Positions 19,017 through 56,357 of a stretch of DNA of 64,000 nucleotides are shown here, piece by piece. The DNA is from Capillidium heterosporum (lineage: Eukaryota > Entomophthoromycota > Entomophthoromycetes > Entomophthorales > Capillidiaceae). The stretch covers positions 2,294,001 through 2,358,000 of the forward strand of contig WBMQ01000001.1 of NCBI GenBank assembly GCA_016630905.1. The letters run 5' to 3'. The number at the start of each line of letters is the position of its first letter. Within the stretch, counting starts at the first letter, position 1. The notes beneath the pieces are model-generated. The model saw only the letters and a list, made by a program, of their open reading frames with translations. It was not told where the DNA came from and did no database searches. A program made the position numbers and the translations under genes.

Positions 19017-19805
19017 CTAACCTCTTCTACACTTCTTCCAAGTTGTTTTGATCCAATCCAAGTATCCATCAACACTGGTATAAACACTAGGGATCTTCAA
19101 CTTAGCATCACAAGATTCCTCACCATACGAAGTGATGCCTACCTGCACGAATTTCTTATCAACTTTAACGAATACAGGGCTACCCGAATCCCCCGAACAA
19201 CTTTCCTTTTTACCATCGGTAGGTCTCATACATATTTGTCTACCCTCTTTCAAACCACCATCGTACTTCAAGTTACAAGTCTTCAAATCTACGAAGCTAA
19301 GTTGGGAGGACCTTAACACAGGGCTATTGTCAGTCGAATTCAACTTAAAATTGCCCCAACCAGCGATCTGCAACTTCTTACTATCCAATTTCAAATTTCT
19401 GTCGTCCAGTTCAATAAAACTAACCGCTATATCTTGAGAGATCGGTTTAGCTAGCTTGTAAATAGCGACATCGTTCTCCAATTTACCGCCTTGGTCAAAA
19501 TTAGGATGGTTGGTATAGGACTTGATAGCTATCTTTACACCGCTTTCCATATCATCACTTTTGGTCAAGTTGAACCGATGGATTAAGGCATATTGTTGGA
19601 TGTTGGGTAAGGTGCAGTGGGCTGCAGTTAAAATTGTAGACCTGTCGAGTAAAGCTCCACCGCAATTCAATCCTGATTCAGTAACTAAAGCTACTAAAAA
19701 TTTAAATTGGAACGGGTTGGTTACAGTACCGTCGATTATCCGCCTTTGACTTTGGATTGGTGTTGAAAGGAGGAGGATGCTAGCTAATAAACTGTAGATC
19801 TTCAT
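19017..19805 (-). CDS. Secreted trypsin-like serine protease (S1A)
   Basis: An intronless 262-residue chymotrypsin-fold protease. The signal peptide is residues 1 to about 18 (MKIYSLLASILLLSTPIQS). A very short pro-segment ends at Arg22 and the mature chain would start at IIDG, so activation by tryptic cleavage is expected. The triad is intact: His63 in LTAAHC, Asp112 in NDVAIYKL, Ser207 in CSGDSGSPV. Paired cysteines fit the fold. Two things are unusual: Glu201 (ESCSGDSG) occupies the position of the specificity Asp189 of classical trypsins, and the usual GDSGGP is GDSGSP. Basic-residue cleavage is still plausible but altered. A TATATATAG box at about 19876-19884 (plus text) lies some 70 nt upstream. 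In such fungi these enzymes digest host or saprotrophic protein. Confidence 0.92.
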   Translation of the reverse strand: MKIYSLLASILLLSTPIQSQRRIIDGTVTNPFQFKFLVALVTESGLNCGGALLDRSTILTAAHCTLPNIQQYALIHRFNLTKSDDMESGVKIAIKSYTNHPNFDQGGKLENDVAIYKLAKPISQDIAVSFIELDDRNLKLDSKKLQIAGWGNFKLNSTDNSPVLRSSQLSFVDLKTCNLKYDGGLKEGRQICMRPTDGKKESCSGDSGSPVFVKVDKKFVQVGITSYGEESCDAKLKIPSVYTSVDGYLDWIKTTWKKCRRG

Positions 19806-20216
19806 TTCGTTATGCTGTTGGTAGAAAATTGAGATTCGAAAGCAAAGTTGATAAGGAAGGATTCCTTTGGCTTATATATAGTTTTTGGGAACAACCAATG
19901 GAACAAATGTTTTCAAATATGGAAGGAAAATTCCAAGTTTTTAGCCGCTAATTATTTAAGCAGCTCCATTAGCAAGCACCATGAACCACTAAATAACATT
20001 TTGTGAAGGAGGTGGCTTGGCAAATGCTACAGCCTAGGTTCGATTGAGATATCTCATCTTATAGCGAATGATGGAATAGCTTGTTTGAAGAATAGGGATA
20101 TCGTAGTTTCGAGCAATTTCTATTTAGTATATATAGTATTCAATCATTATAAAATATGTAGGGTATTTATAAATATAATTAAAAATTATTTTGATATTCG
20201 AAAATCTTTATTATAA
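19806..20216. other. Divergent intergenic region
   Basis: Between the trypsin start (-) and the Cys/His-rich gene (+). Contains the trypsin TATA box near 19880 and TATA-like repeats near 20132-20170. Nothing else. Confidence 0.4.
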
Positions 20217-23116: not shown

Positions 23117-24825
23117 CTAACCAGTAAAATTCAACTGCTTTAGCAAAATTCCCGTGCCGTTGTTAGGGTTGGCTTTAATGCCCATAATTTTGGACATCAA
23201 TTCGTACACCTCAACGTTTGCCACTGGTTCAACAACCCTTCCATCATTAGGTAAATCGGGTCCAACCCCCAAAAGGATGGCCTGCATCGATTCATCAAAG
23301 TTGGAGTAGCCGTGGCGGCCTGGTATGGGATCCAATTTGGTAAGGTGGTCGTAATGTTGGCGATAAGCGAAACTCCATCCCTTTACATTGTTAGCACCTT
23401 AAAATTAAAAAAATATACCTCAGGTGGAATACATAGGACCGGTGGCACATCAAAATTTTTACCATAGTGGTATTTTTGAGGTATATCGTTTTTGTGAAAG
23501 CATTCGAACGTGACATTATTCTGCTTTTTGAAACCTTGGCTGAACTTCTTAAGGCTGGTCAGAATCTTAGCGACATGATTTGGGTCGAAAGGAGTCATAC
23601 CAGCGTACGGTAAGATATGTACCGACTCAATTTCCTTCATGGTAACATAGTCGTCGATGTAAATGGACTTATTACGTGGTGTAGAGACCATACCATGATC
23701 ACTGACGATCAAAATGTTGGTAAAAGCTTCCAAATGACTTTCTTGCAGTCCCTTCCTCAACTTACCAATAGCTCTATCGATCAACCTGATGGCCAAGTTT
23801 ACGGGAGTTGATTTGGGACCAAAGGCATGGCCAGCCGAATCAGTGGTTGATATGTAAGCCATTAAAAAGTCGGGGCTATTTTCGTATTGTTTAATCCAAT
23901 TGAGCAGTTGACTAGTAACCTTGGATGGCGTTACTCGACTACGATAGGGCATGAGATGGGTCAATTTGCTATCGAGACGTGGAGCTTCACTACCGGGCCA
24001 CATAGCTACTGAGACTTTGAGACCTAGACGTTGTGCAGTAGCCCAGATCTAAAAATATATCAGTATGCTTAAATTAAATATACATACTGGTTCCCAAGCC
24101 CAGAACTTAGGACTCAAATTGGATTGAGTGTCCCTGTAAGAGAACGATTGGTTTAAACTGTGAGAGTAAAAGGTATTTCCAATGATACCGTGCACATCAG
24201 GGTAAACGCCGGTTGCTAGCGTGTAGTGATTGGGAAAAGTAATCACCTGCAATATTAAAAACATATGTTAAACTTAACATTGTATACAAATGCTTACAGG
24301 AAAACTTGGGATGAGATGTTGTGCCTTGAATCCTGACTTTGCTTTATTAAAAGAAAATGTTAAACTTTTACATATAAAAAGGTGAAACTACCTATTTCAT
24401 TTAAGTGTGGGGTTATGTTGCGGTTGAGGTACTCAGGTTTAAATCCATCGAGGCTAATAACTATCAGTTTGTTTCTTTGTTTAATGTTGGATCTCTGCAA
24501 CTCGTAGTTGATTCGATTATTGTTGACGATGAGGGCGAGTAAAAACAATGAAAACAGCATTGTAAACACTTGTAAAAATATCTTTAAGGAACAGGCACTG
24601 CCTTCTTCTTCCTATAAAAATACTACTTAAGCTATTTTATTATTGAAAATAATAGGCTACCTCTTTAAATTTATCCACAACTTCATTGGAAGTTCCTAGT
24701 AAAGGCACACTACTTAAATTGTTGCTGCTTATCAATCTGTCTCTATCTTCATCGTCATTTAGTAAATTGCGGTTTATAGTTTGGTTCAATTCAATTATCT
24801 CGCTATAGCTATGTTCTTCTGTCAT
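23117..24825 (-). CDS. ENPP-type phosphodiesterase paralogue, nucleophile Thr replaced by Val
   Basis: Second member of the family at 3698-5355. Six exons on the minus strand (24825-24661, 24611-24392, 24341-24298, 24246-24088, 24048-23419, 23380-23117) join to about 493 residues. Type II topology: the acidic cytosolic tail MTEEHSYSEIIELNQ is followed by a span near residues 66-84. Metal ligands are present: ISLDGFKPEYL, TTDSAGHAFGP, SDHGM, GRHGYSN. At the junction of exons 3 and 4, however, the sequence reads [12 protein letters not shown], where the paralogue and known ENPPs have Thr as the first residue. Val144 therefore replaces the catalytic nucleophile. No other acceptor restores Thr. 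Introns at SFP|, GEP/WEP| and before GW are shared with the paralogue. Probably a pseudoenzyme or binding protein. Confidence 0.85.
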
Positions 24826-31652: not shown

Positions 31653-34600
31653 TCAGCTTTGGGCTCCACCCTCACCACCTTTATCGACGACACTCAACAA
31701 CGCCTGACTGCTTTCGCCACCCTCGCTAATCTTTTCAATCGTAATAGCCTGCTGCATACCTTGTTCCGGTTCAAACCCAACCAACTTCTTAGTGACAGCT
31801 TCAGCGACTCTAGCCCCTTCACTCAACAATCCACCTAACAGTAGTCGAGGTAGATGATTAGCCCGCGCTTTAGCTTCCAAGACTTCTGGCTCAAGGAAGG
31901 TAAACGTCTGCAAGAAGGTCAACTCGAAACCCTTCTCCAAGTCAGGATCCCCCAGGACTAAAGTTTGGAAGGTTGGGTAGTCCAAAGTATGTTCTTTACT
32001 TTCAGTAGTTGTGGGCGTAGCTTCAGTACCCGGTTGAACATCTTCAAAGCTCAACAGGTCTTGGGTAGGGTTCTGGTCAAGGTACTGGATGGCCGCCTTG
32101 AGGAAGCGTCCGGTACCAAATAACCACCCCTCGTCGCTGTCCAAATTTCGAAAGACAAATAAAACCATCGACGAGAATCGAATTAGATCGTCGGTATTCA
32201 ATTTTCCATCCTGATTCATATCGACGGCATCGAAAAACAGTTTAATGCGCGGTTTGGCGTCGGTATTGATGAGTAGATCCAACCCTTTGACCAATTGGTT
32301 CAAAGTGATAGGTTCTTCAGTAGAACCACCCATCAGCTTGAACATACTTTCTATGAGTCGCAACCTAAAACCGGGGTACTGCTGACGCACATCGGTATTG
32401 TTGGCGCGCTCCTCGTTGTTGATACTTACTTCCATCCTTCAGACTGGAGGCGTAGCTTGAAGTCGGGGATCGTGAGCTGATGGGGGTGTCCAGCCGTGCC
32501 CATGTTGTTGTCGAATCTACGAACGCGCTGAAAGCGTCGAAACTCATCCTATGCCCACCATTACTTACACTTTGGTTGGTAGTGCTGGTCGTATTCGTAT
32601 TAGCTCGGTAGAAGAGAGCTGTGTCAAATTTATCGTAGATCTGACTTAGGGCCTGCTTGGAAAACTTGTTGACATCATCCAAATTTCTTAAAGTCGTCTG
32701 CTTGGAGAACAGTTCGATATTGTGGACCACCTTCATCTGCCTAGCTTGGCGTAGCTCCATTACCATGGCATTATCTACCGACTTGAATTCCCGGTAAGCA
32801 ATCGTGATCAGCAACGTGTAGTTGGTAAGTTGCTTGTTCTGTCCCTCACCGGTGTCAACCAGTTGATCCAAGTTGCGGAAGTAGTCTTTTAAAGTTTCTA
32901 CAAAGCTACCATCATCATCAGTCTCCATCAACTTATCCCCGTTGACCTTGAGTACGGCCAGAGCCACTCTAAATAAAACTTGAGGCCCAGTCCATGAAGA
33001 AACAATCTAACACTCGGAGGGCGGTCAGCAGTGGCATAGCGTTGATGAACAAGGTTAGGAACCAGGGCAGGGAGACTAAAGATAGAGTAATTCCCTTGGA
33101 TTTGAGGTGCTGATCCAGAACTGGCATCAACGACGTTACCAAACTTTCAAATACCGACTGGTCCAGCAAAGCCCCATACATACTCGTTGAGTAATAGTTA
33201 GGCAGCATGGAGTCACAAAGAGTCGTTAGGATCCAAAAGGCCTGGGCCTCACTACAGTAGATCAACAAAGCGGAAGCTACGATGTTCATAGCCTGACAGT
33301 AGCCAACCTCTGGATTATGCCAGGCGTAAGCTGAGAGTACCCTACGTAAAGCTCCAATACCGTCGGGCATCCTATAGGCAGCGTATTCGGGTAAACTTCG
33401 GTTCAAATCTTTCTCGATCTCGTCGGTAGATTGAGAGACCTTATCCTTAAATTTATTGACCAGCTCATCGTAGGTCTCCAAGTTTTGAAACCTGCGGTAA
33501 ATGGCTCCACAGCACAGCTCCCAGATCTCCCCTCGTAATCTGCCTGGTACTCCTACCCGAACCAACCTTACAAAGTCAAATCTCCGTACCAATGAGAAGT
33601 TCCAACCATTTTTAGTACAGTAGCTCTGCCAGTGACCTAACTTACGGGCCTCCCTAGACTCACCAAACTCCTCGGGGAAGCCATACTTGAACCCCAACGC
33701 GTTACTTTCGAAGGATTTCAAGTTGCGACAGAAAGACTCGGTAGCCAAAGTGCGCAAGAAAGGCTTGAGGTGCTTGACGACCGACTTTTGAGCTTTGAGC
33801 CGTTCGTTCAATGTCTTGCACCAGTCGTCGAACTGCTGTTGGGACTCCAAGTTGGTAAATATGAAGTAGAAGGTCATGTCATGGTAACTTAGGATGGACA
33901 GTGCACTGGATGGGGGATCTCCTGCTTTAATTACGTGTAGGTTTACTCGCCTTACCAGGTACAGCGGTAAAACCCAGTAACAGGGTGAAAGTAGGCTGGA
34001 TCCGGCGAACGCCAGGAAAGAATTACTCAAAGCTAAACTACCCTTGACTTGGAAGCTGGAATCCTTGGGATGGGTAAACAGAACTTGAGTCTGATCTAAG
34101 AGGATCTCGTCGGAAGGTAGCCTAAACTTGGCTTGGAACTGCTGGTTACGTTTCTGATTGAGTAACGTGGTCTTGAGGTCGACTCCAGTCGGCAATATTT
34201 GGGCGGCTCGGGTCGTCGGGGAGGTGGCTATTTCGGGGATGGTTGAGGTAGCCGTGGACGGGTCGTTGGATTCTAACGCCATACCGGGACAGGGATCTAA
34301 GCTCGAGTTACGTAAAACTCGATCCATAGCGTTTTTCGTCAACTGAGAAAGCAATTCGAACGCCTATCCAAACTACTTTAATAAAATTCACTTTATAAAA
34401 AGTTACTTCATCCCGGTTAAAGAAGTTTCCAAAGTAATGCTATATCCAAATCAATTAGTATTGCTAACAAATATATAGTGGATTACCTTAGTTCCATCTT
34501 TGACGGTAACAGTTACTGGGGATGGTAAAGACAGCGCTGAAGCAGCTGCCGAAACCTTGTTGGCACTGCCATCTTCCTGGAAACTGTTTCCTAAACCTCG

Positions 34601-41319: not shown

Positions 41320-41682
41320 TCAATGCTCACTACGCTTAAGCATTCTAAGGAGGAGAGAGCGCTAGGTAAAAAACAAGTAAAAGACTCAAAATCTATAGGC
41401 TACTTTCTTAATAAGAGAAGGCATTCGCATAGGTGCAATACCCATCCTAGCCTTAGAATTAAGTGAAGCAAGCAAGTCAGGTCTCTTTATTGGAGCCATC
41501 TGTACCTTGGATAAATTGCTATTTATGATTTGATTTTTGGAGTCAGTTACCAAATTGAGGGCATTTTTGCTAGTGACATCATTACCTAGCTGGGTCTTCA
41601 TAGCTTGCCATGCTGCTCTACCTAAAGCGGCACTCAAGATAAAGTTTATGAGGATGACAATCAGTAGCATATGGAATTTCAT
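41320..41682 (-). CDS. Small secreted protein, micro-exon family copy 1
   Basis: First of five related minus-strand genes. Exon 1 (41682-41404) encodes a signal peptide, MKFHMLLIVILINFILSAALG, then AAWQAMKTQLGNDVTSKNAL, the family core, and a basic Pro/Met-containing tail ending SLIKK. A 42-nt intron (donor GTAGCC, acceptor CTAG ending at 41362) leads to exon 2 (41361-41320), encoding RSLLLRMLKRSEH and a stop. Without splicing the protein would end VAYRF. About 106 residues in all, no cysteine bridge pattern, strongly basic C-terminus. TTTATATAC lies about 70 nt upstream. No known family recognised; a secreted, possibly host- or membrane-directed peptide is a guess. Confidence 0.7.
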
Positions 41683-42854
41683 GCTGGAGGTTAACAGTAG
41701 CTGTAGATGGCACCATTTCTTTTAATTATTTAGAGATTGGATGTTAAAACTTTATATACCTTTGATATCAATGATTTGGAACGTACGAAGCGACGCACAC
41801 TGCATCTGCTCTATAATACAGTTCCCGTTTAGCATGAACAATTTATTGGATAGACTTGATTCAATTGTAGAATTTTTAAGAAAGCCAATGAACATAGAGT
41901 TTGAATCTGCACCAGTTGTTTTGATAGGCTGTACTGGGAAACGTGCTAACTTTTAGCATAAATGATAATATATTTATAGTTTACTTTGTCAAATTAATGG
42001 ACTACTACACTATCATAGTGCAAACTCTGACAAGTAAAAATGTAATTGGTACAACTTGGTTCCTATTCAAATACATTTTGAAAGAAAACGAGAACTCGAT
42101 CAGCACCTAAATTTAGTAATTATAGGTTTTACTTTTTAATTCGAAATTTCAAAGCCTTAGAGCTGCTTTTACTTTAACCGATAGGAACACTTGATGCATC
42201 CATTCCTAAACTATCAGTTTTATTAAATTTGGAGCTCCACCTCTAATCTATAGATAGATATATTTAAGTTATATCTTTTTTGCAATAGAGCTTTTGATCT
42301 TGCTATGCTGAACTAACTGCTAAATACTTTAATTCATTCCGAATAAATAATCCATAATTCCTGTAAACTTTAAAGGATATGGTTATATTAATTTAGAATA
42401 TAGTTTTGGAAAGAATTCAGCTATCCTTAGAATTGGATAAAATTCATTGTAAAGGAATTCATATAAATTTTAGTTAGATGGGTTGCATCCAAATACATAA
42501 AAATTCAAATCTACTCGAGCTCATATGTAAATCAGTTAAACCTAGCTAGTATCTTTTCAAAGAAATATGTACTATTGAACTTTCAATCCGAATAATTAAA
42601 AGTAATTCGAATTTGGGTTATGATCTAAGATTTATTCTAATTACATGCTTCAACCGTATTAGGTAAGTCACTTCAATAAGTCTTCAAAGTAAAAGCATGT
42701 AAACATATATATGTTATAAAGTCAAAGTTAACTTACTACTAAAACATCAGCTTATATATAGTAAATATTTGAAACTTTATCAATTTAAATCGAATCAAGG
42801 CTTTAGGCCAAGCCTAGTCAAATGGAATAGGATACTAGCCTAGTGTCACATCTT
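41683..42854. other. Intergenic region / promoter of copy 1
   Basis: TATA-like TTTATATAC near 41750-41758 and a GGAACGTAC block near 41778. The rest is AT-rich with nothing else seen. Confidence 0.35.
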
Positions 42855-43218
42855 TCATTTTCTATTACGCTTAAACATTCTGAGGAGGAGGGAGCGCTAG
42901 GTAAAACAAAAATTAGTAAAGAATTCAAAATCTATAGTTTACCTTCTTAATACCAGCAGGAGCAGCGGGGTTTCGGATAGAAGTGGTTTGTACTTGCAAA
43001 CTAGGTTTCTTTTTTCCGGTAAGGTCGACATTAGGCCTTGGGGGAATTGGAGCTTGAGGGGTGAGTATCCTATCGGTACCCTCTTTGATATTGTTTATTA
43101 ACTTTGCCATGTTGTTGCTAGTGACACCGTTGATGATCTGCTCTTTGGCGATTTGGCCGACTGTAGAGCTTAGAGCGAAGTTGAAGAGGAGAGCGGTCAG
43201 TAAGATTTGGAACTTCAT
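42855..43218 (-). CDS. Small secreted protein, micro-exon family copy 2
   Basis: Paralogue of the 41320 gene. Exon 1 (43218-42943): signal peptide MKFQILLTALLFNFALSSTVG, core QIAKEQIINGVTSNNMAKLI, then a Pro-rich basic middle (PQAPIPPRPNVD) ending GIKK. Donor GTAAAC, branch-like CTAAT and acceptor CCTAG remove 46 nt. Exon 2 (42896-42855) encodes RSLLLRMFKRNRK. The product is about 105 residues. Exon 2 is nearly identical in sense to that of copy 1, which supports splicing rather than the read-through ending VNYRF. TTTATATAC at about 43278-43286 and the palindromic element at 43321-43332 lie upstream. Confidence 0.75.
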
Positions 43219-44611
43219 GTTGGAGATGTAGGCGGTTTCAACTGAATCTGTACTTTTTGAGGTTTAAATCCAAAGCTCTTTATATACAGTTGCTACTAAC
43301 AATCGGAACAGAAGATATATCCAATATATTGAATAAGCAGCGCTAACTATATAGAGTTCAAGGATTCAATCTAGTTATCTTAGAATTTCGAGCTACAGTG
43401 ATAGCTTCGATAAGATGGAACTGGTGGGTGTGTTAAAGAGATCCTTTGAAAGCCGAACAATTACCTATAAAGGCAATGTTATTAATTTTTCTATTAATGG
43501 CTGGTGTTTACGTTTATGCAAATTATATTTAGTTAAAAGTATATTGAATAGCTCGGTTCCGAATACAGTTGATATTGGAAGGTAACTGGAATCGGAACAT
43601 AATCGGTTTCCAAATTTAGTAAAAGTAATTTTCAGAGTTTGGATTCCAGTTGAATTTGGAAACCATGGCAATGCCTTTACTTTATATAGTATTAATATAC
43701 GATGCACCTATTTCTTAGACCGGCAACCGCATTTCTTCATGTTGTATAGCGGATATATAATTAGATAAGTTTAGCACATATTTATTCCTGCCAAGGTTTT
43801 AGTTACCATTTGACCTTAAATTTATACTTCATCAGTTCCAAAATAAATAGCACATAATCTTTAGTAAAATTGAATAATTGCTGTTGATTTAATTGGGACC
43901 AACGTTGATGCACAACTTTTTCTCAACTCAGTTCTCACAAACTAAAGTTTTCTTCTATAGGTATGTACAGGTTATTTTGAACTTAAATAGTATTTGAAAG
44001 AATCAAAATTTTACCAGTTTTTTCTCTTTCAAATCACTTGAGAGACGTTAGTACCCAATATATGAAGGATAGACTTGCAGAAGAAATCGCATCCTGGCCA
44101 GACCTTGATCCGTTGTTACCTGGTAGCCTTTTCTTGTTCGCTGGGAACAAACATATTATTTGAGAAGATTTGTCCCCCACCTTCTCATTTCAACCTCTAG
44201 GTGCTTTAAAAAGCATATAGAACATATTTATTCCTCACTTTATGCTTTATTCTAAATAAACATCTTGGCTTTAAAAAAACTTTACCAGCTTTCAAAGTTC
44301 ATCCAAAGTTATATAGCAAGCTTCAATTGAATCGACTACAATCCCATAACTTAAATATCCACCCAAGTATTGGATGCAAAGCAATAAGTTTGGTCAAAGC
44401 TTATTGAAACGAATCAATACTACTTGAGCCATCAGCACTATAATCGAAGTCAGCCAAGTTAAGGCACATCAATAAGTTTTTGAAATATTTAGAAGAATAT
44501 ATTTTACTAAATAAATTTTATTAAATATATCAGTTGAATCAAATAAAAACTTCTGATTTTGTTAAGTTTGAATACTAGTTTTTTAGATATTCCTCCAGCT
44601 GGCACCATAAA
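43219..44611. other. Intergenic region
   Basis: Contains the promoter elements described at 43278-43332. The frame at 43465-43707 has no motif. Nothing else recognised. Confidence 0.35.
43305..43332 (-). promoter_or_regulatory. GGAACAG plus palindromic AATATATT element, copy A
   Basis: GGAACAG at 43305-43311 followed by CCAATATATTGA at 43321-43332, 103 nt upstream of the ATG at 43218. Related pairs lie upstream of the 44993 and 49597 starts. Confidence 0.55.
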
Positions 44612-44993
44612 TCACATCTTACTACGCTTAAACGTGTGAAGGGAACGCTAAAATATAAATATATAAGTAAACTTGAACTTAAACTATTTATCTTACTCTC
44701 TTATTGCGAATGGGAAGCTTCAATGGATCGGTGCTTAGACGGGGAACCTTAATCTTACTTTTATCTACCTTGATTTTAGGTCCAGGTTTAGTAACGAGGT
44801 TATGTCTCTTTGGACTATATCTGGGCTTAGGGTTCATCTTGCGCTCGATACCCTTTTTGACATCGGTTACCATCTTTATCATATTGTTGCTAGTGACACC
44901 GTTGATAACCTGCTCTTTCAAAATCTGGCCGACACTGGGGACAGCCAAGTTAAAGTTTAGTAAAAGGGCGAGAAGTATTATTTGCAGTTTCAT
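44612..44993 (-). CDS. Small secreted protein, micro-exon family copy 3
   Basis: Exon 1 (44993-44697): signal peptide MKLQIILLALLLNFNLAVPS, core VGQILKEQVINGVTSNNMIK, then a long basic Lys/Pro/Arg region ending RNKR. A GTAAGA donor and TTTTAG acceptor remove 49 nt. Exon 2 (44647-44612) encodes RSLHTFKRSKM. The product is about 110 residues. The ATG at 44993 is preferred to 45050 because the TATA-like box (about 45064-45074) is only some 15 nt from the latter and the family signal peptide starts at 44993. The core VINGVTSNNM is nearly the same as in copy 2. Confidence 0.75.
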
Positions 44994-46241
44994 TTTAGTG
45001 GTGTTATATTCAGTTAGTTGGGTCAAAATCTGTAGTTGTAATTTTTTCAAGGCTGGATTTACAAGCGTTTAAATAGACAACTGTTGATTATTTGGAACAG
45101 ACAAGGTAATGTCCAATATATTGGATATGTTCAAATATTCATACTTGAATGAGTTCCAACTGTCTGCCTTAGAGTTTCAAGCTGCTTAAATCAATTTTAA
45201 CAGAGTACAACGAAAATTGCAGTAGGGGCTTAAAGCTCAAAGTCAAAAAACAATATATAAATTGACGCCATAAAACTTATATTTCAATTATAGTCGGAAA
45301 ATTGTACCTAAATTAAGGAAAACTTAATTTAAAAACTGTAGCTTGGTTCTCATTCAAGTTTATCTTGGTGAGGAACTGGAACTCAATAAACTACTAGACT
45401 CAATAGATATAAGCTTTGCCTTTAGATTCTAAGCAAAATTTTGTAAAAAGGTAAACATTTTCACTTTACCTAAAGGTTAACGTACTTGACCAAAATTATT
45501 TGAGTTAGGTAGTTTTCATTTTGAAATAGATCTGAAATTTGATTTTATAAATTTCCAGATTTGGTAATTATAGACTTATATATTTGGAATTTAAACATTC
45601 AAAACTTTGAGATAAATTTTAGTAGTAAGTCAAATTTTACACATCTGGACTGTTAGCTACTTTTCCTGCAGTCATATTTCTAGTCTATAGGTAAAAGTAT
45701 TTTGTTTGATGTCTTTTATTCTCAACAATTTTCATACTTTATGTAAAGAAGTCTTTCTAAATCAGCTACAATTTCGCTTAATAACTAGAACTCAAATTAT
45801 AACCAGACTTAGACGACTAGCCAATATTCTCTTATCAAAATTAGAGATTTCTCCTTTTTAGCAGGAATTAAGTGCTCAATTTCGTACTGACTGTTCCTAA
45901 ATCCTTGCACTCCCTAAAGCTAACGATGATCTTCCAGAAGTACCCAATGGATTTTGATACTGGGGCTTAGATGAACACTAATCACCAGTATCTAGAATAT
46001 TGACTACTAAAGACAAGTCATCTATATAAAGCCCATAGTAAACTTAGTAGTAGGTCAAGTAGTTATTAAATAAACGTATTGAACATTTGATATTTCCTTC
46101 TGTTATCGGCATAGTATAGACACCCTGCATAATATAATTGAGAACTAATAATTTGCATCCCTCCAAGACCGAGAGTTACACTGACCTGAACTGAATCAAC
46201 GAATCGAACTGAACCGAATCCTCAAAAAAGATTTACAACCA
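44994..46241. other. Intergenic region
   Basis: Promoter of copy 3 at the left (45064-45125). Between about 45860 and 46240 the text is slightly richer in GC, but I could not read a gene in it. Confidence 0.3.
45094..45125 (-). promoter_or_regulatory. GGAACAG plus perfect palindrome, copy B
   Basis: GGAACAG at 45094-45100 and CCAATATATTGG at 45113-45124, a perfect 12-bp palindrome, 120 nt upstream of the ATG at 44993. Confidence 0.55.
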
Positions 46242-46400
46242 ATGAATTTGACTACATTCCTTAGCCTCATGGCTACGATCGGAGTATTCCTGTCCGCTCA
46301 CCACCTCTGGATCAGACTCCAGGAACAAATTTCTTCCTTGTATAGCCTTCTTGTCAACTTTTTTAGCCTTTATGGAGTACTGGCTACGATGGCATCCTGA
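46242..46400 (+). CDS. Hypothetical small secreted peptide
   Basis: ATG 46242 to TGA 46400, 52 residues. The N-terminus MNLTTFLSLMATIGVFLSAH is a plausible signal peptide, followed by a Leu/Phe-rich segment ending VLATMAS. In another frame just downstream the text reads TGYDGILINPYW followed by GTAAGC, faintly like the start of a secreted-protease domain, so this could be the first part of a broken gene. Evidence is weak; no family recognised. Confidence 0.3.
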   Translation: MNLTTFLSLMATIGVFLSAHHLWIRLQEQISSLYSLLVNFFSLYGVLATMAS

Positions 46401-46963
46401 TTAACCCCTACTGGTAAGCATTCTTGGTAGATATTTCCCAGCATCTTACTATTTCAAATTGCTCCAGATTACATGATTTATTAACTTGCTTCTAATAGGT
46501 ATTCTTTTAATTTGGGAATGAAATTTATACTTTGAAATTTTGGCAAACTATATCGTACATATATCCATCAAGTTATAGTTTTTTTGGCCAAGGCATATTG
46601 ATGAGCCCAAATTAACAGAAAGCAAGGGTGTATCAAAATATACAGTTCAAAATAAATTTTTCTAGTAAAAATCTAAAGTTTATATGTCAACAATTTTACA
46701 AGACTTTTACTAAATATATTAAATGAAATCGAACCAAATTCTCCGAATAATATTGAGTCAAATCAAGCACTGTTACTAGTCTAACTAGATATTCAAATAA
46801 ACCCCTACTATAATCAAAGAATCAGGATAAAGAACGATAAACAAAAATTATATCAATGCCATTAAATCAAAAATCAAAAACTTAGCTTTACTACCTATAA
46901 ACCTGGCTGGAATATCTTTCTGATTTATAGGTTTAACCTCAAATTGATATTGATCGACTTGGG
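46401..46963. other. Intergenic region
   Basis: AT-rich; nothing recognised beyond the possible relic noted at 46365-46410. Confidence 0.3.
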
Positions 46964-47146
46964 TTACCTTTTAGGTCGATTGCTATGCTCAGCTTGATCT
47001 TTGATTTTGGTTGCTGCACGGTTCATAATTTCACTGATGCTGCCGTTACCGAGCTGAGTTTTCATAGCTTATCAGACTACTTGACTTATACTGGAACTCA
47101 AACCAATGTTGAGGAGAAGGGCGACTACCAATAAGTGAAGCTTCAT
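46964..47146 (-). pseudogene. Micro-exon family copy 4, stop-broken
   Basis: ATG 47146 begins an intact-looking signal peptide, MKLHLLVVALLLNIGLSSS, followed by ISQVV and then two adjacent stops, TGA TAA. The frame goes on with AMKTQLGNGSISEIMNRAAT, matching AMKTQLGNDVTSKNAL of copy 1. The two stops sit exactly where copy 1 has Trp-Gln (TGG CAA), so two point changes suffice. The reading ends at TAA 46964, close to a possible donor (AAAAGGTAACC) for the lost micro-exon. Clear pseudogene of the family. Confidence 0.75.
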
Positions 47147-49257
47147 TTTAGAGGATAATGTTAAGTCTAGTTGTGTTTAAATTGACAATTATTAAGTTTG
47201 GATCCAAAATGCCTTTCTATACCTTCTGCTGATACCTAGAGCATGCGAAAAAGTACTCAGTATATCGAATAAATTAAATACAATTTATAAAACTATGAAG
47301 TTGATACAATTAGCCTAGAACTCATAGATGTAACACTGGCTATAGATGAGTTGAAGTAGAAAATATGATAGAAGCGTCTAATGCAGTCAAAAAATTGATG
47401 TTTTATATTTATTACTTGTGTCTACATCTATGTAAACCATATAGAGTTATAAATATAATGTACAACTCAACTCTGATTCAAATTCATCTTAAAAAGGAAG
47501 CAGAACTTGGGTATTATAATCACTAAATTTGAGTTGTGCGCATTTAGGCTGACAATATCATACTGAATTATGCTTTCCTTATAAGGTAGTATTTAGGAAG
47601 TTTCAATAAGTTCTGAAGTTCGTTGAAAAATGTTGGTCTTCATCTTTAGTGAGTGCTTTCAATCTAAAAAATAGAATTTTCACTTTCATACTTGAAACAA
47701 TAGCCTGTAGGTGATAGTGATGCCTTTACTTTACCTGATAATAGCTGCAATGGGTAAAGCTGTGAGAATTTCGTTAGTATTTTAAAAAAAGAATAAAGCA
47801 AGACTAACCTATAAATATAATAGCATCACAGTATAGTCTTAATAAGGTGCTATTTAAAATACAGTTTCATTACGATTCCTTTGCTTTATAAATTTCAAAA
47901 GGAAGGGTTATATTGACTCCTACTGTTGAAATTTCTGACTATATCCCAACGTAAAGCTATTGTCTTTGATAAAGTATGTATATTTTACAAATTTATAGTA
48001 TTCTATCATAGAATTAATCGGTATAATTTTCAATTTTAATACAAAATGTTGTAACAGCTAACTATGGATCTATGCATACTACGCTGAGATATTTCTTGTC
48101 ATCTGGGCTATAAATAAGAAATTTATAAATTTACAAAGATACCCTTACTTTAAAGGTAAGGGTGCTAAATTACTCTTCAATAGTGGTAAGTTAATTGAAC
48201 TTGGTAGCGTTTTTCTAAGCTATATATGTAAAATTTTAGCTTGTAGCTCCAGTCTCAACCAACTTTTTCAGGTAGCCACTAAGGATACTAACAGTTGATA
48301 TGTAAATTGACAAAAGATGTCTACTTAAAAAGCGACATGTGATTAAAAAATGTAGATGAATTAAATTGGCAAGCAACTATATAGCAAAAAATTAATTTGA
48401 TATGCTTGATTCAACTTTTCATTCCACTAGTACTGAATTGAATAGGATACATTTTCAACAAAATATGACAGGTATGGGAATACTAATTGAGAATGTGGAG
48501 TATATGTTTACTAAAATGCAACTCCTTTGAAACTAATAAAAGCTCATTCAAGAGGATTTATCGAACCAAAGTTGAGCTGATCGTATACTTGTGCCTAATT
48601 TAAAATTAAATTTCACTTTTTATAAAGGCTTTTGCTCTAACAAAAGTACCTCAATTGTAACCTATAGAGCTATATGCAACATCCCAAATAGTTCAAATTA
48701 AAGATACTTTAAGACTAAAGATTGGAGGTCTTTCGAAATTCCAACTTGGGGAATTTTTCATAAAAAATATGCTCCATACTTACTTTTAGATGATATGTAT
48801 CGACCTTAATCCAAATTAGTAGACTTAAGTTCTTGAAAGGTTAATTTATAGTATTCTATTATATTCCAACTACGATGCCTACAATCGAATGCAACTATTT
48901 TGGAAAAAGAATATCGTGGGTAGTAAAGGAGAATTTAATCGGCATTCTTTCCAATAAAAATATATAATTTAAAAAGCATCTTCAATACATTTGGAAAATA
49001 ATATGTGGATTTATTTTATCGGCATGGGATCACTACCAATTGGAAAGCTTGTCATAGGTGTATTACCAAATGAAGCCCTAAAGCCTAAGGTGATGTAAAT
49101 GTATTAACTTATCCTGTATATTAAAAGCAAGTATATAAAGGTTATAAATGACAAAATGTATACTAAATCTGAACAATTTATTAATCTCGATCAACCATTA
49201 TTTGAATCAGAAAGTGAAAACAAATTTGCTAACTCTATATACTAAACTTAATCACAC
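47147..49257. other. Long intergenic region
   Basis: About 2.1 kb. A degenerate counterpart of the family promoter (AGTATATCGAATAA near 47260) lies left. A minus-strand fragment near 47710-47760 looks vaguely coding (LSPTGYCFKYE) but cannot be extended. Otherwise AT-rich. Confidence 0.3.
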
Positions 49258-49597
49258 TTACTTTCTGATACTTAGCTTCTATATAACAATTAGTATTTTA
49301 AGAAAATAGCAATTAAAATACCTTCTTGATAGATGGGAAGCTGATCTTATTCTTGAGGAACTTGGGCTTAACTGGTTTAGTATCAGCCTTCTTTTTAAAA
49401 CTCATCTTGGGTACGATAGATCCCAAACTTGGTTTCTTTTCCTCCTTACTCACTGTTTTGGACATGAGATTGATACCCCCATTACTAGTAACTGCGTTGA
49501 TGGCTTGTTCCTTGACTATACCTTTGATCGCTTTGAAGAATTGGGCGCTTGAGGCAAAGCTTAGGAGGAAAACTAAGAAGGTTAAAGAGAAATTCAT
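49258..49597 (-). CDS. Small secreted protein, micro-exon family copy 5
   Basis: Most divergent member. Exon 1 (49597-49322): signal peptide MNFSLTFLVFLLSFASSAQF, core GIVKEQAINAVTSNGGINLM, then Lys/Ser/Pro-rich sequence ending FPSIKK. A 43-nt intron (GTATTT donor, CTAATTG branch, ATATAG acceptor ending 49279) leads to a seven-codon exon 2 (49278-49258) encoding KLSIRK and a stop. The product is about 98 residues. TTTATATAG sits about 60 nt upstream and the palindromic element at 49701-49713. The shared KEQxINxVTSN core and intron position place it in the family. Confidence 0.7.
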
Positions 49598-51059
49598 ATT
49601 TTAGAAAGTTGATTCTGTATATTTTTATATTCAAGAGAGGTGGGGCTTGTGCCTCTTTATATAGAAAATTTTACCAACAGCCAGAACAGTTGTATACAAT
49701 ACAATATATTGGGTAAGTTGGATTGAAGTTCCACCTATTTACATATCGGTTCTACTTAGTTTGGTACTTATCGCTTTATGTACAAGTTAATGGCAACGAT
49801 AAAGATGCTTGATGAAAGCTGCTAGATGAAGCTTGGTATATCAAATTTGAGTTTAGCAAATCGAATTCTTGCTTTTATGTGTATGTTTGGTTTTACTAAT
49901 TATAATGTTGTCATCGACAATCAAGCTTAAAGTAGATATAACAGGCATATAGATTAAAATCAAGGAAGAATTAATGTAGTATATATTGATTTCTATAACC
50001 GGAACAATTCTACAGCCATTCTAGTTTTCTTGTCGTTCTATTAAATATTTAGATTCTATTCGATCGATAAAAAGCTAGCTTTTTATTGATAAATTAGTTT
50101 GGCTAAAGGATAATTATTATAGAACAAAATTAGTATAGTAATTTAAGCATCTCAGTTTGAATTCATTTTAGTTTCCATCAGCCAGAATTCTGCCGTATTT
50201 TCAATTCAAGCCTTACAGATGTGGCAGATTTTTCCGAGATCCGAAAATTGGAATACAGCGTCCTATCAAAAGGTAAATAAAGAATTAGTTAAGGGTAAGT
50301 GGACAGTTCCATCATGGATTTACTAAAGCTGGATTCTACCTAAACGAACCAGTTCAAATGGGCTTAGAACCGAAGTAATATCCTAAAACAAGACTTTATT
50401 TTCTAAACCAGCGATTCTATTGACAATTGAGTTTCATCCCTCAAGAAAAACTGCTAATAAAGCGTTAGTATTTTTATAAAAATTTGGATATTTCAAAACT
50501 CTTTTATATATTTCATTTTCAAAATTTAAGGATATGAGAAGCTGGTCTAAACTGTTGAAATTACCTCTACCAAATGCTAATGTAAGATCCCTTTATTCAT
50601 ATATACTAATCTGCGCAAATATGCCCTACAACTAATTGAATCCAATTTTTAGCTACGTTAAATACAAAGCTATATATGTATCTAAGTCAAAATCACAAAT
50701 GATAATGTAATAACTAAACTGAACTAATCGAGAGATATATGGCAAGGACACCAATTTTGTTAGTTTAGATTTTCAAAAGTTGAGTATACCGTGCTGGTGA
50801 TTGATTTGCAGTTTACATTGTTTTATATATCCATCATCTACCCTTGACAAACAACTTGTATAGTAGGCTATTTTTTATTGTTTAAATTAATGTCTTGTAA
50901 ATTGAATATTACTTTAAAGCATAATAAGTGGGACCATGTACCATTTTTATTATATATATCTTATAAAATGCATATATATAAAATCTAAACTCTTAATGAA
51001 ATCTAGTTATAAGACCAAAGCATCAATTACATCCAAAATACTTACTCAATATCTCCTAA
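49598..51059. other. Intergenic region
   Basis: Promoter of copy 5 at the left. The rest is AT-rich; the plus-strand frame at 50936-51160 partly overlies, antisense, the subtilisin pseudogene and is not a gene. Confidence 0.4.
49683..49713 (-). promoter_or_regulatory. AGAACAG plus near-palindrome, copy C
   Basis: AGAACAG at 49683-49689 and ACAATATATTGGG at 49701-49713, 104 nt upstream of the ATG at 49597. Confidence 0.5.
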
Positions 51060-52209: not shown

Positions 52210-53298
52210 CTAGTTAATCTTCTTGGTATCGTTGTTGGTTTTCTTAATCTTGGTATCAGTGACAGCTAAAGAGTTATCCAAATCTTCCAAAAGCTTATTG
52301 TGCAACGCCAGTTCGTTACCAATCTCCGTACCTATTAAATGTTGTCGCTGCAAGATCTGACTGAACTGGTCCAACGACTGGTCCTGCATCTCCATCTTGG
52401 CTTTCTGAAGCTGTAGTAAACCTTCACTGTCGAGAGCTCTAGTTTCCTTTGTTTCGGCTGGGATGGCAGCACTGCCAAAGACACGTCTAGATCGAGTTGG
52501 TGTTGGTTGGTTGAGTAGTTGACCACGGTCGGCAGTAGCGTTGCCTGGGGTTGTGGATCTAGAACTACTTGTTGATTCAGTGGGATGTGTACGGTGGATT
52601 AGTTGGTTAAGCAGGCCTTTTTCACTATGTAGATGTTCGAGTAAATCGCGTCTGCGTAAAAGTTCCCCTGAAGTTAAAGTAAGACCACTATTATTGGTTT
52701 GGCCGAGCAACGTCAATGATTTTTCCAAGTTTACGAGCCTAGCATTTAGGCTCAAACTCTGCTTACGCGCTTGAGCTGTGTACTGGTGGGCGGTCGTCAA
52801 GTTACGTTGAGAAAATTCATTCTCGCGTTTAATAAGTATAGCTCGTATCTCGCGCACCAAACTTTGGCAGGACTTCAACTCGATTAACCACCCCTCCGAT
52901 GAAACCTCCATGTTGGTGTCATTTAAAGCGGATCGTGAAGTCGGTACTTGGAGAAATTGGGCAATTAACTCGCTGTCACGCCACCTTGACTCGGAGGTTA
53001 ATAACAAACATCGTAAGTAAGCTTCGAACCCTAGTTTACGGTCTTCAATAAGACCTTCATCACTAAACCCTACACAACTGAACCACGATGTCTTGGGAGG
53101 TAACTCCATCGGTAAAGGTTTGTCCGTCAGCCTACTTAGTTCCTTGTGTAAAGCTTCAAACTCGCTGTACCGCTTCCATATCGCCCAAGCTCGAACTTCC
53201 CCCCGAACTAAAATTTGGTACTTGATGTGTCGACTTGGTACTGCATATATCTCGGCCCCATCTATATCGATACTCTTGATCTTTTCGAATTTGGTCAT
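52210..53298 (-). CDS. vam7: PX-domain Qc-SNARE, Vam7-like
   Basis: An intronless 362-residue protein. Residues about 5-118 form a PX phosphoinositide-binding domain: WKRYSEF (Arg43), the Pro-rich loop LPMELPPKTSW, and IEDRKLGFEAYL (Arg87). A Ser/Thr-rich linker follows. The C-terminal 60 residues form a Qc-SNARE helix (QSLDQFSQILQRQHLIGTEI, then GNELALHNKLLEDLD). There is no transmembrane segment. This is the architecture of yeast Vam7, which is held on vacuolar membranes by PtdIns3P and drives vacuole fusion with Vam3, Vti1 and Nyv1. Unusually, the position of the ionic zero-layer Gln (xxQN in Vam7, syntaxin-8 and SNAP-25) is His333 (ALHN). The start is the first ATG, right before the PX fold. 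Confidence 0.88.
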   Translation of the reverse strand: MTKFEKIKSIDIDGAEIYAVPSRHIKYQILVRGEVRAWAIWKRYSEFEALHKELSRLTDKPLPMELPPKTSWFSCVGFSDEGLIEDRKLGFEAYLRCLLLTSESRWRDSELIAQFLQVPTSRSALNDTNMEVSSEGWLIELKSCQSLVREIRAILIKRENEFSQRNLTTAHQYTAQARKQSLSLNARLVNLEKSLTLLGQTNNSGLTLTSGELLRRRDLLEHLHSEKGLLNQLIHRTHPTESTSSSRSTTPGNATADRGQLLNQPTPTRSRRVFGSAAIPAETKETRALDSEGLLQLQKAKMEMQDQSLDQFSQILQRQHLIGTEIGNELALHNKLLEDLDNSLAVTDTKIKKTNNDTKKIN

Positions 53299-55052
53299 CC
53301 TACTATCGTTGATTCCTTGTTTCGCTTAAATTGGATAAGGATGCTAATGAAAATAAAGTGGTTGAAAAAATAGTTTGTTGGAATTTGAACTCCATTATGA
53401 CGTAATCTATTTATGAAAACACATTTGGATAAAATAGGGCGTCCAAATCAAGAGTTTACATGTAGAAGTATAGTTGAAAATGTATCTCATATAAAACATA
53501 TAGCATGTATCAGTAAGGATATTTGCTCGTACTTTGGTTTTATTTGTACACTAATGAATGTTTGATTTAACACATATGAACTATAGCTTATAATGATTTC
53601 AATAATAGCTATTATCATCTTTAATATGTAGAAAATATAAATCATATTCAATCTGCTCATTTTAAAGGAATAATAGTATTTTATTTAAGTGTAAATATTC
53701 TAAAATTCATCATATACACTTTACTATGTACCGTAGTTGTAACAATATATGAAATAATTTACTTGCCAAAGTATATAGCTATAGTATACTTTGAATTCAC
53801 TCTTTTAAGCTGATTATAAATTTAGTTTTTATCAAAATTTAATTCACCGTAAAAACTTAATACCACTAGCACAAAATAAATGTAAAAGATGGTTTGATGA
53901 TCTAGCTACAGTGCAAATACTAAACCAAAATTTAAAATACAACGGAAATATTAAATAGATCATACAATTTGATAACTAAACTAAAATTGAAATACTTCAA
54001 TTTATATTGAACATTGCTAGTAAAAAATCACTTTACTAATTTCAAAAACTACTGTATCATGTATACCGCTATTTGTATATCAATTACTTGCAAAATATAG
54101 CTAAACTCAGCTGTAGGTTTTTTGAAATTACTACAAATAAAAACTTGCATTAAAATATACCTAAAAGCGACGCTACATGAAAAATGTAATAAAATTAGAA
54201 CATAGCTATAAAACAAAGAAACGCAATAGTTTGTTACTTTGACTTTTTATTTAAAAGAGTGAAAGGTATTCTATAATGACAGGCTTCAACAACAGACTTT
54301 TAGTTTAATTAAACAAATATCGAATAAAAGTTATCAAAGTAAAATTGAACTTGCTGGAGAATTGGATTAACCTTCTATAAATTTGATTTGGAAATAAATG
54401 AAATTGTAGCGTTGTTGATATAAATCTCATTCTCTACCTATACTCATCTACACCTATTTAGAAGGCTGCTTTCTCCAAAATTTGCCAACTTTTAATATCC
54501 TGCAGCTTATATAAAAAGAGAATTTACTAATAATATAAAGCTTTACCTTGTATACACATTACTCTGAAGGTTCTCTTGAATCCAACTATTTCTACCAATT
54601 CAAATGCCTCATTTGCTTATTGAACTAGAACAAGCACTTTAACAAAGTGGAGTTCAACTGTATAAGTCCAAATTATGGTATTTTCAGTAGAATGACGAAA
54701 CTTGACTAATCAGATGGTGTTTCCAACTTTTATCCTAAATTCAAATAAAAGGTCTAAAGTCTGTTCGTAAATAGCAAACGCCTTTAGGTAATAGTATATA
54801 GTATAAAAGGTCGATTATTTGCGATTAGGGTAGTATTGACATGGACAAAATGAAATGGTATTTCTGGTCACAATAGATTTTGCAAAGAAAATGGAAGGGT
54901 GATGCGTTGGAAAAGGTTAAATTATCCCAACATCGTCCAATGAACACCGAGAAATATATATCTCAACTTATTATCAGCTCAAGAAATCTATAAATTACTA
55001 ACCAAGTCCTCGACCTTTGTCAAGTTTCAGTTCAGTTTTATTCAATTCAGTT
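53299..55052. other. Divergent intergenic region
   Basis: About 1.75 kb, very AT-rich. A TATAAAT box at about 54988-54995 precedes the subtilisin ATG by some 60 nt. No other gene seen. Confidence 0.45.
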
Positions 55053-56357
55053 ATGAAGTTGCTATCGATTATTTCAGTTACCAGCGCTTTGATGGGCGCC
55101 ATACTCGGCACCACCCTGGAAAGCCACCTTAAAATCAAAGACACCCACAACATCCACAACATCAAGGACATCCACAATATCATCCCAGACCACTACATCA
55201 TCAAATTCAAGGACCACGTCGATATCCTAAGCATGGAATCCCATTTTACCTTCCTCAACCTAGTAGTCGCTGAAGAGATGCTATTCAAAGGTACCAAGGC
55301 CAAGAAATCCAACTACATCAAGCATGTCTATCATGGTGCTGGTATCTTAGGTTACAGCGGTAGTTTCCAACCCGAAATCATCCAGAAAATCCGCACTTCA
55401 AAAGAAGTAGACTTCATCGAGCACGACAAAGTCATGTCCATCAACGACAACATCCAGCAGAATGGAGCCCCTTGGGGATTAGCCCGTATTAGTCATCGTG
55501 ATTCATTGACCTTTGGTACCTTCAACAAGTACATCCACGACCCACAAGCTGGTACCAACGTCACGGCTTACATCATCGATACTGGGGTCAACGTTGATCA
55601 CGTCGAGTTCCAAGGTAGAGCTGTGTGGGGTAAGACTATTCCTAGTGGAGACGAAGATGCTGACGGTAACGGGCACGGTACTCACGTAGCCGGTACTATA
55701 GGTAGCCAGAAGTATGGTGTAGCTAAAGGAGTCAAGCTAGTAGCTGTCAAAGTCTTAAGATCCAACGGCCAAGGCTCCAATTCGGACGTCATCAAAGGTA
55801 TTGAATGGGCCGCCAATGCTGCCAAGGAGGAAGCCGAGCAAGCTAAAGCTGAAGGTAGGGTCCACAAAGGCAGTGTTGCCAACATGTCACTGGGTGGTGG
55901 TTACTCTCGAATCCTCAATTTGATCGTCGATGCTGCCGTCCAGCAAGGTCTGCATTTTGCCGTAGCTGCTGGTAACGACGATGCCGACGCTTGCAGCTAC
56001 TCCCCAGCCTCTGCCAAATTGGCAGTAACGGTTGGTGCTACTAATATCCTAGATGAACGGGCTTGGTTCTCTAACTGGGGTAAATGTACTGATATCTTCG
56101 CCCCTGGTAAGGATGTTTTGTCGACTTGGAAGGGTTCGAAGTATAGCACGAATACCATCTCGGGCACTTCGATGGCCTCCCCTCACGTCGCCGGTACCTT
56201 GGCTTACCTGCTATCTCAAGAGGACGGCCCCGTTGAACCCGAAAAGCTTACCAAAAAGCTACTCAAGTTGGCTACTAAGAACGCCGTCGACGATGTAGGT
56301 AAGGGTTCTCCCAACTTACTTTTGTACAACTGGAGTTTAAATGATGCTTTGGATTAA
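55053..56357 (+). CDS. Secreted subtilisin-like serine protease (S8A, proteinase K type)
   Basis: An intronless 434-residue preproenzyme. Signal peptide: residues 1 to about 19 (MKLLSIISVTSALMGAILG). An inhibitor-I9 propeptide follows (PDHYIIKFKDH...), preceded by a His/Asn/Ile-rich stretch with repeated HNI units (residues 31-44). The mature domain begins near APWGLARISH. The triad is complete: Asp176 in IIDTGV, His208 in NGHGTHVAG, Ser373 in GTSMASP; the oxyanion Asn is Asn308 in AAGN. A short Lys/Glu/Ala-rich insert (KEEAEQAKAEGRVHK) lengthens a surface loop. The ATG at 55053 is chosen because the upstream in-frame TTG is not a eukaryotic start. Such enzymes degrade extracellular protein, including insect cuticle in entomopathogens. 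A decayed inverted copy is at 51060-51830. Confidence 0.95.
   Translation: MKLLSIISVTSALMGAILGTTLESHLKIKDTHNIHNIKDIHNIIPDHYIIKFKDHVDILSMESHFTFLNLVVAEEMLFKGTKAKKSNYIKHVYHGAGILGYSGSFQPEIIQKIRTSKEVDFIEHDKVMSINDNIQQNGAPWGLARISHRDSLTFGTFNKYIHDPQAGTNVTAYIIDTGVNVDHVEFQGRAVWGKTIPSGDEDADGNGHGTHVAGTIGSQKYGVAKGVKLVAVKVLRSNGQGSNSDVIKGIEWAANAAKEEAEQAKAEGRVHKGSVANMSLGGGYSRILNLIVDAAVQQGLHFAVAAGNDDADACSYSPASAKLAVTVGATNILDERAWFSNWGKCTDIFAPGKDVLSTWKGSKYSTNTISGTSMASPHVAGTLAYLLSQEDGPVEPEKLTKKLLKLATKNAVDDVGKGSPNLLLYNWSLNDALD

What the first reader, a model, noticed from the sequence alone, without database searches (positions are those of the whole stretch)
41320..49597. Tandem family of small secreted proteins with a conserved basic C-terminal micro-exon
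Five minus-strand genes (41320, 42855, 44612, 46964 dead, 49258) share a signal peptide of the MK[FL]xxLLxxLLxNF type, a core KEQxINGVTSNN and a Lys-rich tail. In the four intact copies the first exon ends in K-K or K-R at a phase-0 donor, and a 42-49 nt intron leads to a tiny exon encoding RSLLLRMFKRNRK, RSLLLRMLKRSEH, RSLHTFKRSKM or KLSIRK. The tail is the best conserved part of two copies although it is separated from the core, so it probably matters for function. I know of no described family like this. The tail could be a membrane-active, nucleic-acid-binding or cleaved peptide; this is speculation.
Basis: partly seen in the sequence, partly recalled or inferred. Interest (0 to 1): 0.78.

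Follow-up and report, generated by a model that had tools for sequence, protein, structure and literature searches.

The report
Tandem secreted proteins with spliced tails
A fungus probably related to insect-killing moulds carries a small cluster of genes, not found elsewhere in the collections searched, for short positively charged proteins that look secreted, and a tiny last exon adds a short segment that a standard secretory protease might cut out as a free peptide.

Summary
Four intact minus-strand genes and one dead copy lie in 8.3 kb. Each intact gene has a signal-peptide-like start, a phase-0 intron of 42-49 nt and a 6- to 13-codon last exon. Genome searches found the family only here. 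No relative was found in a 5.8-billion-protein collection, Pfam or PDB sequences. One neighbouring gene's nearest named match is Massospora cicadina, suggesting Entomophthorales or kin.

Two corrections. First, tail likeness between the closest copies is weak evidence of function: their introns (35 of 42) are as alike as their last exons (33 of 42). Better evidence is the third copy, whose intron has diverged while RSL...FKR remains. Second, three of four spliced products read K-R, 5-7 residues, K-R, as in a kexin-released peptide; in two of them the first K-R exists only after splicing. The genome encodes two kexin-like proteases.

Best reading: single-peptide Kex2 precursors in a lineage-restricted family (confidence 0.38). 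Against it, the fourth copy lacks K-R, and no transcript or peptide data were available.

The parts
41404..41682 (-). g41 exon 1: signal-peptide-like start, core KTQLGNDVTSKN, linker, ends ...LIKK
41362..41403 (-). g41 intron, 42 nt, phase 0; 35 of 42 aligned bases identical to the g42 intron
41320..41361 (-). g41 exon 2, RSLLLRMLKRSEH + stop; K-R completed at the splice junction
42943..43218 (-). g42 exon 1: signal-peptide-like start, core KEQIINGVTSNN, linker, ends ...GIKK
42897..42942 (-). g42 intron, 46 nt, phase 0, holds TTTACTAATT
42855..42896 (-). g42 exon 2, RSLLLRMFKRNRK + stop; K-R completed at the splice junction
44697..44993 (-). g44 exon 1: signal-peptide-like start, core KEQVINGVTSNN, linker, ends ...RNKR
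44648..44696 (-). g44 intron, 49 nt, phase 0
44612..44647 (-). g44 exon 2, RSLHTFKRSKM + stop
49322..49597 (-). g49 exon 1: signal-peptide-like start, core KEQAINAVTSNG, Lys-rich linker, ends ...SIKK
49279..49321 (-). g49 intron, 43 nt, phase 0, holds ATACTAATTG
49258..49278 (-). g49 exon 2, KLSIRK + stop; no K-R site
46964..47146 (-). dead copy (in-frame stops), similar to g41 and g44
43322..43331 (-). CAATATATTG (palindrome) 113 nt before the g42 ATG; TATATAAAG 68 nt before the ATG
45114..45123 (-). CAATATATTG (palindrome) 130 nt before the g44 ATG
49702..49711 (-). CAATATATTG (palindrome) 114 nt before the g49 ATG; TATATAAAG 66 nt before the ATG

Best explanation
The genes encode precursors of short secreted peptides in a lineage-restricted family of an Entomophthorales-like fungus. 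The signal peptide sends the product into the secretory pathway, where a kexin-like protease cuts after K-R on both sides of a short segment (SLLLRMF, SLLLRML or SLHTF once the trailing K-R is trimmed), freeing one peptide per molecule. The conserved KEQxINGVTSNN part and the variable linker would be the pro-region. The last exon carries the peptide, and in g41 and g42 splicing also completes the first K-R, so a transcript that keeps the intron would make a product with neither that site nor the peptide. Shown: gene anatomy, K-R placement, tail likeness across a diverged intron, kexin-like genes in the genome. Inferred: secretion, splicing, cleavage and a signalling role. g49, without K-R, would be uncleaved or cut weakly at K-K.
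For: Spliced products hold K-R, 5-7 residues, K-R in 3 of 4 genes. Two K-R sites that close within the last 22 residues arise in 0.6%, 0.8% and 2.6% of shuffles of the mature part of g41, g42 and g44; the genes are homologous, so these are not independent tests. The g44 tail stays alike to g41 and g42 (z 6.2, 8.1) although its intron does so little (z 0.7, 2.7). In the g42-g44 tail silent sites differ more than replacement sites (pS 0.60, pN 0.27; 11 codons, 6.7 silent sites). A tail pattern written from the three copies matches only those three places in 29.5 Mb (control 0). Two genes with a P domain and an S8 protease domain are in the genome. P4 at the first site is Ile in g41 and g42; Kex2 prefers aliphatic P4 (PMC8528282, passages seen).
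Against: g49 has no K-R and no R-R, and its tail resembles none of the others (z 0.4-1.4). The segment differs in length (5 or 7) and sequence between copies. The g41-g42 likeness is explained at least partly by conversion or recent copying. Lys-rich proteins offer many basic pairs. There is one candidate peptide per molecule, unlike repeat precursors. The signal peptide was judged by eye; no predictor was available. The catalytic residues of the kexin-like genes were not checked. No transcript or peptide data.
Confidence: 0.38

Rival explanations
1. Ordinary lineage-specific small secreted cationic proteins (effector-like or surface proteins). The tail is simply the C-terminal end of an uncleaved basic protein, and the short last exon is an accident of intron position.
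For: All four mature parts (from residue 23) are strongly basic (pI 10.6-11.7, net charge +11 to +20, no cysteine). The linker between core and tail hardly shows constraint (pN 0.50 to 0.57 over the six pairs). g49 lacks K-R but keeps a basic end. The model of g42 exon 1 is one helix over residues 2-52 and then no structure, at low confidence (pLDDT 61, pTM 0.21).
Against: The tail keeps RSL...(F/L)KR in three copies while the linker has diverged, which is more specific than keeping charge.
Confidence: 0.32
2. The tail has no special role: recent copying or gene conversion keeps parts of neighbouring genes alike.
For: g41-g42 intron identity 35/42 equals exon 2 identity 33/42; silent divergence is low in the tail (pS 0.34 against 0.69 for the whole gene); likeness ends at the stop codon. 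Other non-coding stretches also keep likeness: 250-600 nt upstream for g41-g42 (z 11.6), g41-g44 (7.7) and g42-g44 (4.5), and the first 250 nt upstream for g42-g44 (7.3). The g42-g44 core also has low silent divergence (pS 0.40).
Against: It accounts poorly for g44, whose tail is kept with little intron likeness.
Confidence: 0.17
3. The genes are not spliced and end a few codons into the supposed intron, so exon 2 is untranslated.
For: Reading through gives in-frame stops after 2-5 codons (KKVF, KRVR, KKVNYRF, KKVAYRF). The introns (42-49 nt) are shorter than three in a neighbouring carrier gene (about 80-95 nt, boundaries placed by eye). The branch-point-like sequences of g41 and g44 depart from TACTAAY (consensus recalled; sequences).
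Against: All four have phase-0 GT...AG; g42 and g49 hold TACTAAT; exon 2 of g42 and g44 keeps R, S, L, F, K and R despite base changes.
Confidence: 0.07
4. The tail is a nuclear-targeting or nucleic-acid-binding signal used inside a host cell.
For: Clusters of K and R.
Against: Not tested; the residue-specific part between the K-R pairs is not needed for such a signal (inference).
Confidence: 0.06

Closest known systems
KEX2-processed repeat proteins (KEPs) of fungi
   Same: Signal-peptide precursor with short peptides bounded by Kex2 sites; Zoopagomycota had the most per strain (11.56) in one survey (PMC7329392, passages seen).
   Different: KEPs need repeats: at least 3 tandem repeats of 8 or more residues (PMC7329392), or at least four fragments as the first filter of a repeat search (PMC6339444). 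Here there is one short segment and no repeat seen by eye.
Kex2-processed pro-domain (K2PP) effectors
   Same: Secreted precursors with a K-R site for a kexin (PMC8528282, passages seen).
   Different: There the pro-domain is N-terminal and sites were sought in the first half of the protein; here the paired sites lie at the extreme C-terminus.
Ascomycete alpha-factor-type pheromone precursors
   Same: Short peptide freed by Kex2 from a secreted precursor (PMC6339444, start of abstract in the listing and passages).
   Different: No repeats here and no Pfam match; no mating genes were looked for.
Schistosome micro-exon genes (recalled, no call supports this row)
   Same: Small secreted products that include tiny exons.
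   Different: Those have many internal symmetric micro-exons; here one short terminal exon.

Membership tests
KEX2-processed repeat proteins (KEPs) | ER signal peptide | tested here: inconclusive
   Hydrophobic N-terminus by eye in all four; no predictor was available.
KEX2-processed repeat proteins (KEPs) | Tandem repeats between Kex2 sites (at least 3 of 8 or more residues in PMC7329392) | tested here: not met
   Cutting at K-R and R-R gives no repeated fragments by eye in g41, g42 or g44 and no cut in g49. No repeat program was run on the proteins. g41 and g44 do give four fragments of two or more residues and so would pass the first filter of PMC6339444; g42 gives three.
Kex2-processed pro-domain (K2PP) effectors | Kex2 site in the first half of the protein, freeing the rest as mature effector | tested here: not met
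   K-R sites begin at residues 66, 93, 102 of 106 (g41); 92, 101 of 105 (g42); 62, 98, 106 of 110 (g44); none in g49. The LxxR form of the site was not scanned.
Kex2-released peptide precursors (general) | Paired dibasic sites around a short segment | tested here: met
   3 of 4 spliced products; g49 not.
Kex2-released peptide precursors (general) | A kexin in the genome | tested here: met
   Two P-domain genes: L061 has full S8 and P domains in one frame; L060 has the P domain and, in a neighbouring frame upstream, part of an S8 domain. Catalytic residues not checked.
Kex2-released peptide precursors (general) | Free peptide in the secretome | not testable with these tools
   Needs peptidomics.
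Described Pfam families | Match to a profile | tested here: not met
   0 families for 4 of 4 proteins at E up to 10.

The most novel reading that the evidence does not exclude
Splicing gates peptide release: removing a 42-49 nt intron adds the peptide and, in g41 and g42, completes the kexin site at the exon junction, so intron retention would switch the same gene between a peptide-yielding precursor and a peptide-less secreted protein. I know of no such arrangement for fungal secreted peptides (recall; not searched for as such).
Probability: 0.1. Interest if true: 0.7.

Novelty: new member of a known kind. Interest (0 to 1): 0.4.

Why it matters
Orphan tandem families of small secreted proteins are common in fungi (general knowledge), so the family alone is unsurprising. 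If the tail is a released peptide, it would be a non-repeat kexin precursor that surveys built on repeats would probably miss. It would also give a concrete, testable candidate for a signalling or host-directed peptide in what is probably an insect-associated lineage.

Tried and rejected
Promoter regulon. CAATATATTG lies 113-130 nt before the ATG of g42, g44 and g49 and is rare in the window (4 matches, expected 0.15). CAATATATTGGA is over-represented genome-wide (50 matches against 12 for the reversed pattern; a full palindrome counts twice and some sites are copies in duplicated segments). I fetched 44 regions that hold the 47 matches outside the window and looked for a TATA box and a first ATG frame of 40 or more codons within 400 nt. 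This crude look, blind to introns, showed no set of secreted-protein genes, so shared ancestry of duplicated promoters is the simpler reading. g41 has only a variant (CCAATAAATTG).

Amphipathic membrane-active helix: hydrophobic moments of core and tail do not exceed shuffles in any of 4 genes.

Structure: the exon-1 model is too poor for fold comparison (mean pLDDT 61, pTM 0.21), so no fold search was made.

Other copies: genome searches with g44, g41 and g49 and tail patterns gave only this cluster. g42 was not used as a genome protein query. Searches by g44 and g41 did not list g49, so diverged copies elsewhere could be missed. A first, badly chosen core pattern matched nothing, this locus included.

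Literature: five searches listed no paper that I could recognise, from titles and abstract openings, as describing this family. The protein sequences were not searched for in papers.

The intron-retention ends KKVNYRF and KKVAYRF of g42 and g41 were considered as an alternative product; they lie in the patch where these two introns are alike, and g44 and g49 have nothing similar.
Full report
What is there. The window lies on contig 1 of a 29.5-Mb, 44-contig genome. A fifth copy with in-frame stops starts at 47146. All five are on the minus strand between a GRAM/RabGAP-TBC gene (32969-34363) and a PX-domain gene (52210-53325). GC over 36-52 kb is 0.31-0.32 against 0.33-0.43 in the other 4-kb blocks.

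Which organism. The PX protein's best named match is Massospora cicadina (48% identity), below an unnamed protein at 52%; the next named one, Calocera viscosa, is at 37%. A fungus of Entomophthorales or a related group is likely, on this one gene; the species was not identified.

Is it a family. g44 finds g42 (E 3.3e-16), g41 (3.7e-4) and the dead copy (0.05); g41 finds the dead copy (1.4e-5), g44 and g42; g49 finds only g41, weakly (E 0.9), and rests on KEQAINAVTSN, orientation and intron position. Silent divergence is high over the whole gene in all six pairs (pS 0.60-0.79) and replacement divergence lower (pN 0.36-0.50), which fits purifying selection, least in the linker (pN 0.50-0.57). 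Site numbers per region are small.

Are there relatives. None was found in the protein collection with the 4-row alignment (2064 candidates, none at E 10 or better) or with g44 alone (3 candidates, none), in Pfam or in PDB sequences. The protein search needs shared 5-residue words and annotated proteins, so small spliced genes in related fungi may be missed.

The tail. For g41 and g42 the intron (35/42) is as alike as exon 2 (33/42), while the later part of exon 1 and the 150 nt after the stop show no excess likeness (z -1.1 and -0.1), apart from the last 18 or so bases of exon 1 (repeat D5). Upstream non-coding stretches also keep likeness (250-600 nt upstream: g41-g42 z 11.6, g41-g44 7.7, g42-g44 4.5), so likeness outside coding sequence is patchy along the cluster and does not by itself mark function. 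For g44 the intron shows little excess likeness to g41 (z 0.7) or g42 (z 2.7), but the tail shows more (z 6.2 and 8.1). So selection on the tail is supported by three copies; the g49 tail resembles none of them (z 0.4-1.4).

The peptide reading. After splicing, g41, g42 and g44 read KKR-SLLLRML-KR-SEH, KKR-SLLLRMF-KR-NRK and KRR-SLHTF-KR-SKM. In g41 and g42 exon 1 ends in K-K and exon 2 begins with R, so the first K-R exists only in the spliced product; in g44 exon 1 already ends in K-R. Shuffling the mature part gives such a pair of sites near the end in 0.6-2.6% of cases for these three. The genome has two kexin-like genes: one with full S8 and P domains in one frame (L061), the other with the P domain in one frame and part of an S8 domain in a frame upstream (L060), followed by a hydrophobic stretch and an acidic end that look like a membrane anchor by eye. 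Against this, g49 has no K-R or R-R, and splicing, secretion and cleavage are all unproven.

Comparison with the known. The family does not meet the definition of KEPs, because no repeats are seen, though g41 and g44 would pass one survey's first filter on fragment number. It is not a K2PP effector as defined, because the paired sites lie at the C-terminus. It may work like a Kex2 peptide precursor without belonging to either. Of the papers named I saw passages (PMC6339444, PMC7329392, PMC8528282); of all others only search listings.

Promoters. Three of the four intact genes carry CAATATATTG 113-130 nt upstream (g42, g44, g49), and three (g41, g42, g49) have TATATAAAG 66-76 nt upstream. A genome-wide look at a longer form of the site did not show a regulon.

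Verdict. A real tandem family of basic, secreted-looking proteins, found so far only at this locus, with a tail best read as a candidate kexin-released peptide. The family is a new member of a common kind; the splice-completed cleavage site in two copies is the one unusual feature, and it is untested.

Noticed in passing
window 45742-46458: A dispersed repeat of about 700 bp lies between g44 and the dead copy. The search with 45200-47000 gave 62 matching pieces in the genome, itself included (40 of 300 candidates were scored; others up to 85% identity), several in closely spaced inverted pairs; no clear terminal inverted repeat or target-site duplication was seen.
   Followed up: partly
L032 and L033 (contig C22) and L038-L040 (contig C23): Sites on the 38-kb contig C22 and near the end of C23 have nearly identical short frames beside them, so C22 looks like a copy of that region; the same 62-residue frame occurs in both orientations about 8 kb apart.
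   Followed up: no
window 19017-19871 and 55053-56357: Single-frame trypsin-like (S1) and subtilisin-like (S8 with I9 propeptide) genes, both with signal-peptide-like starts by eye, lie in the same window.
   Followed up: no
window 4424-5080 and 23383-24048: Two separate frames with type I phosphodiesterase / nucleotide pyrophosphatase domains in one window.
   Followed up: no
window 1156-1165: The only CAATATATTG in the window outside the family promoters.
   Followed up: no
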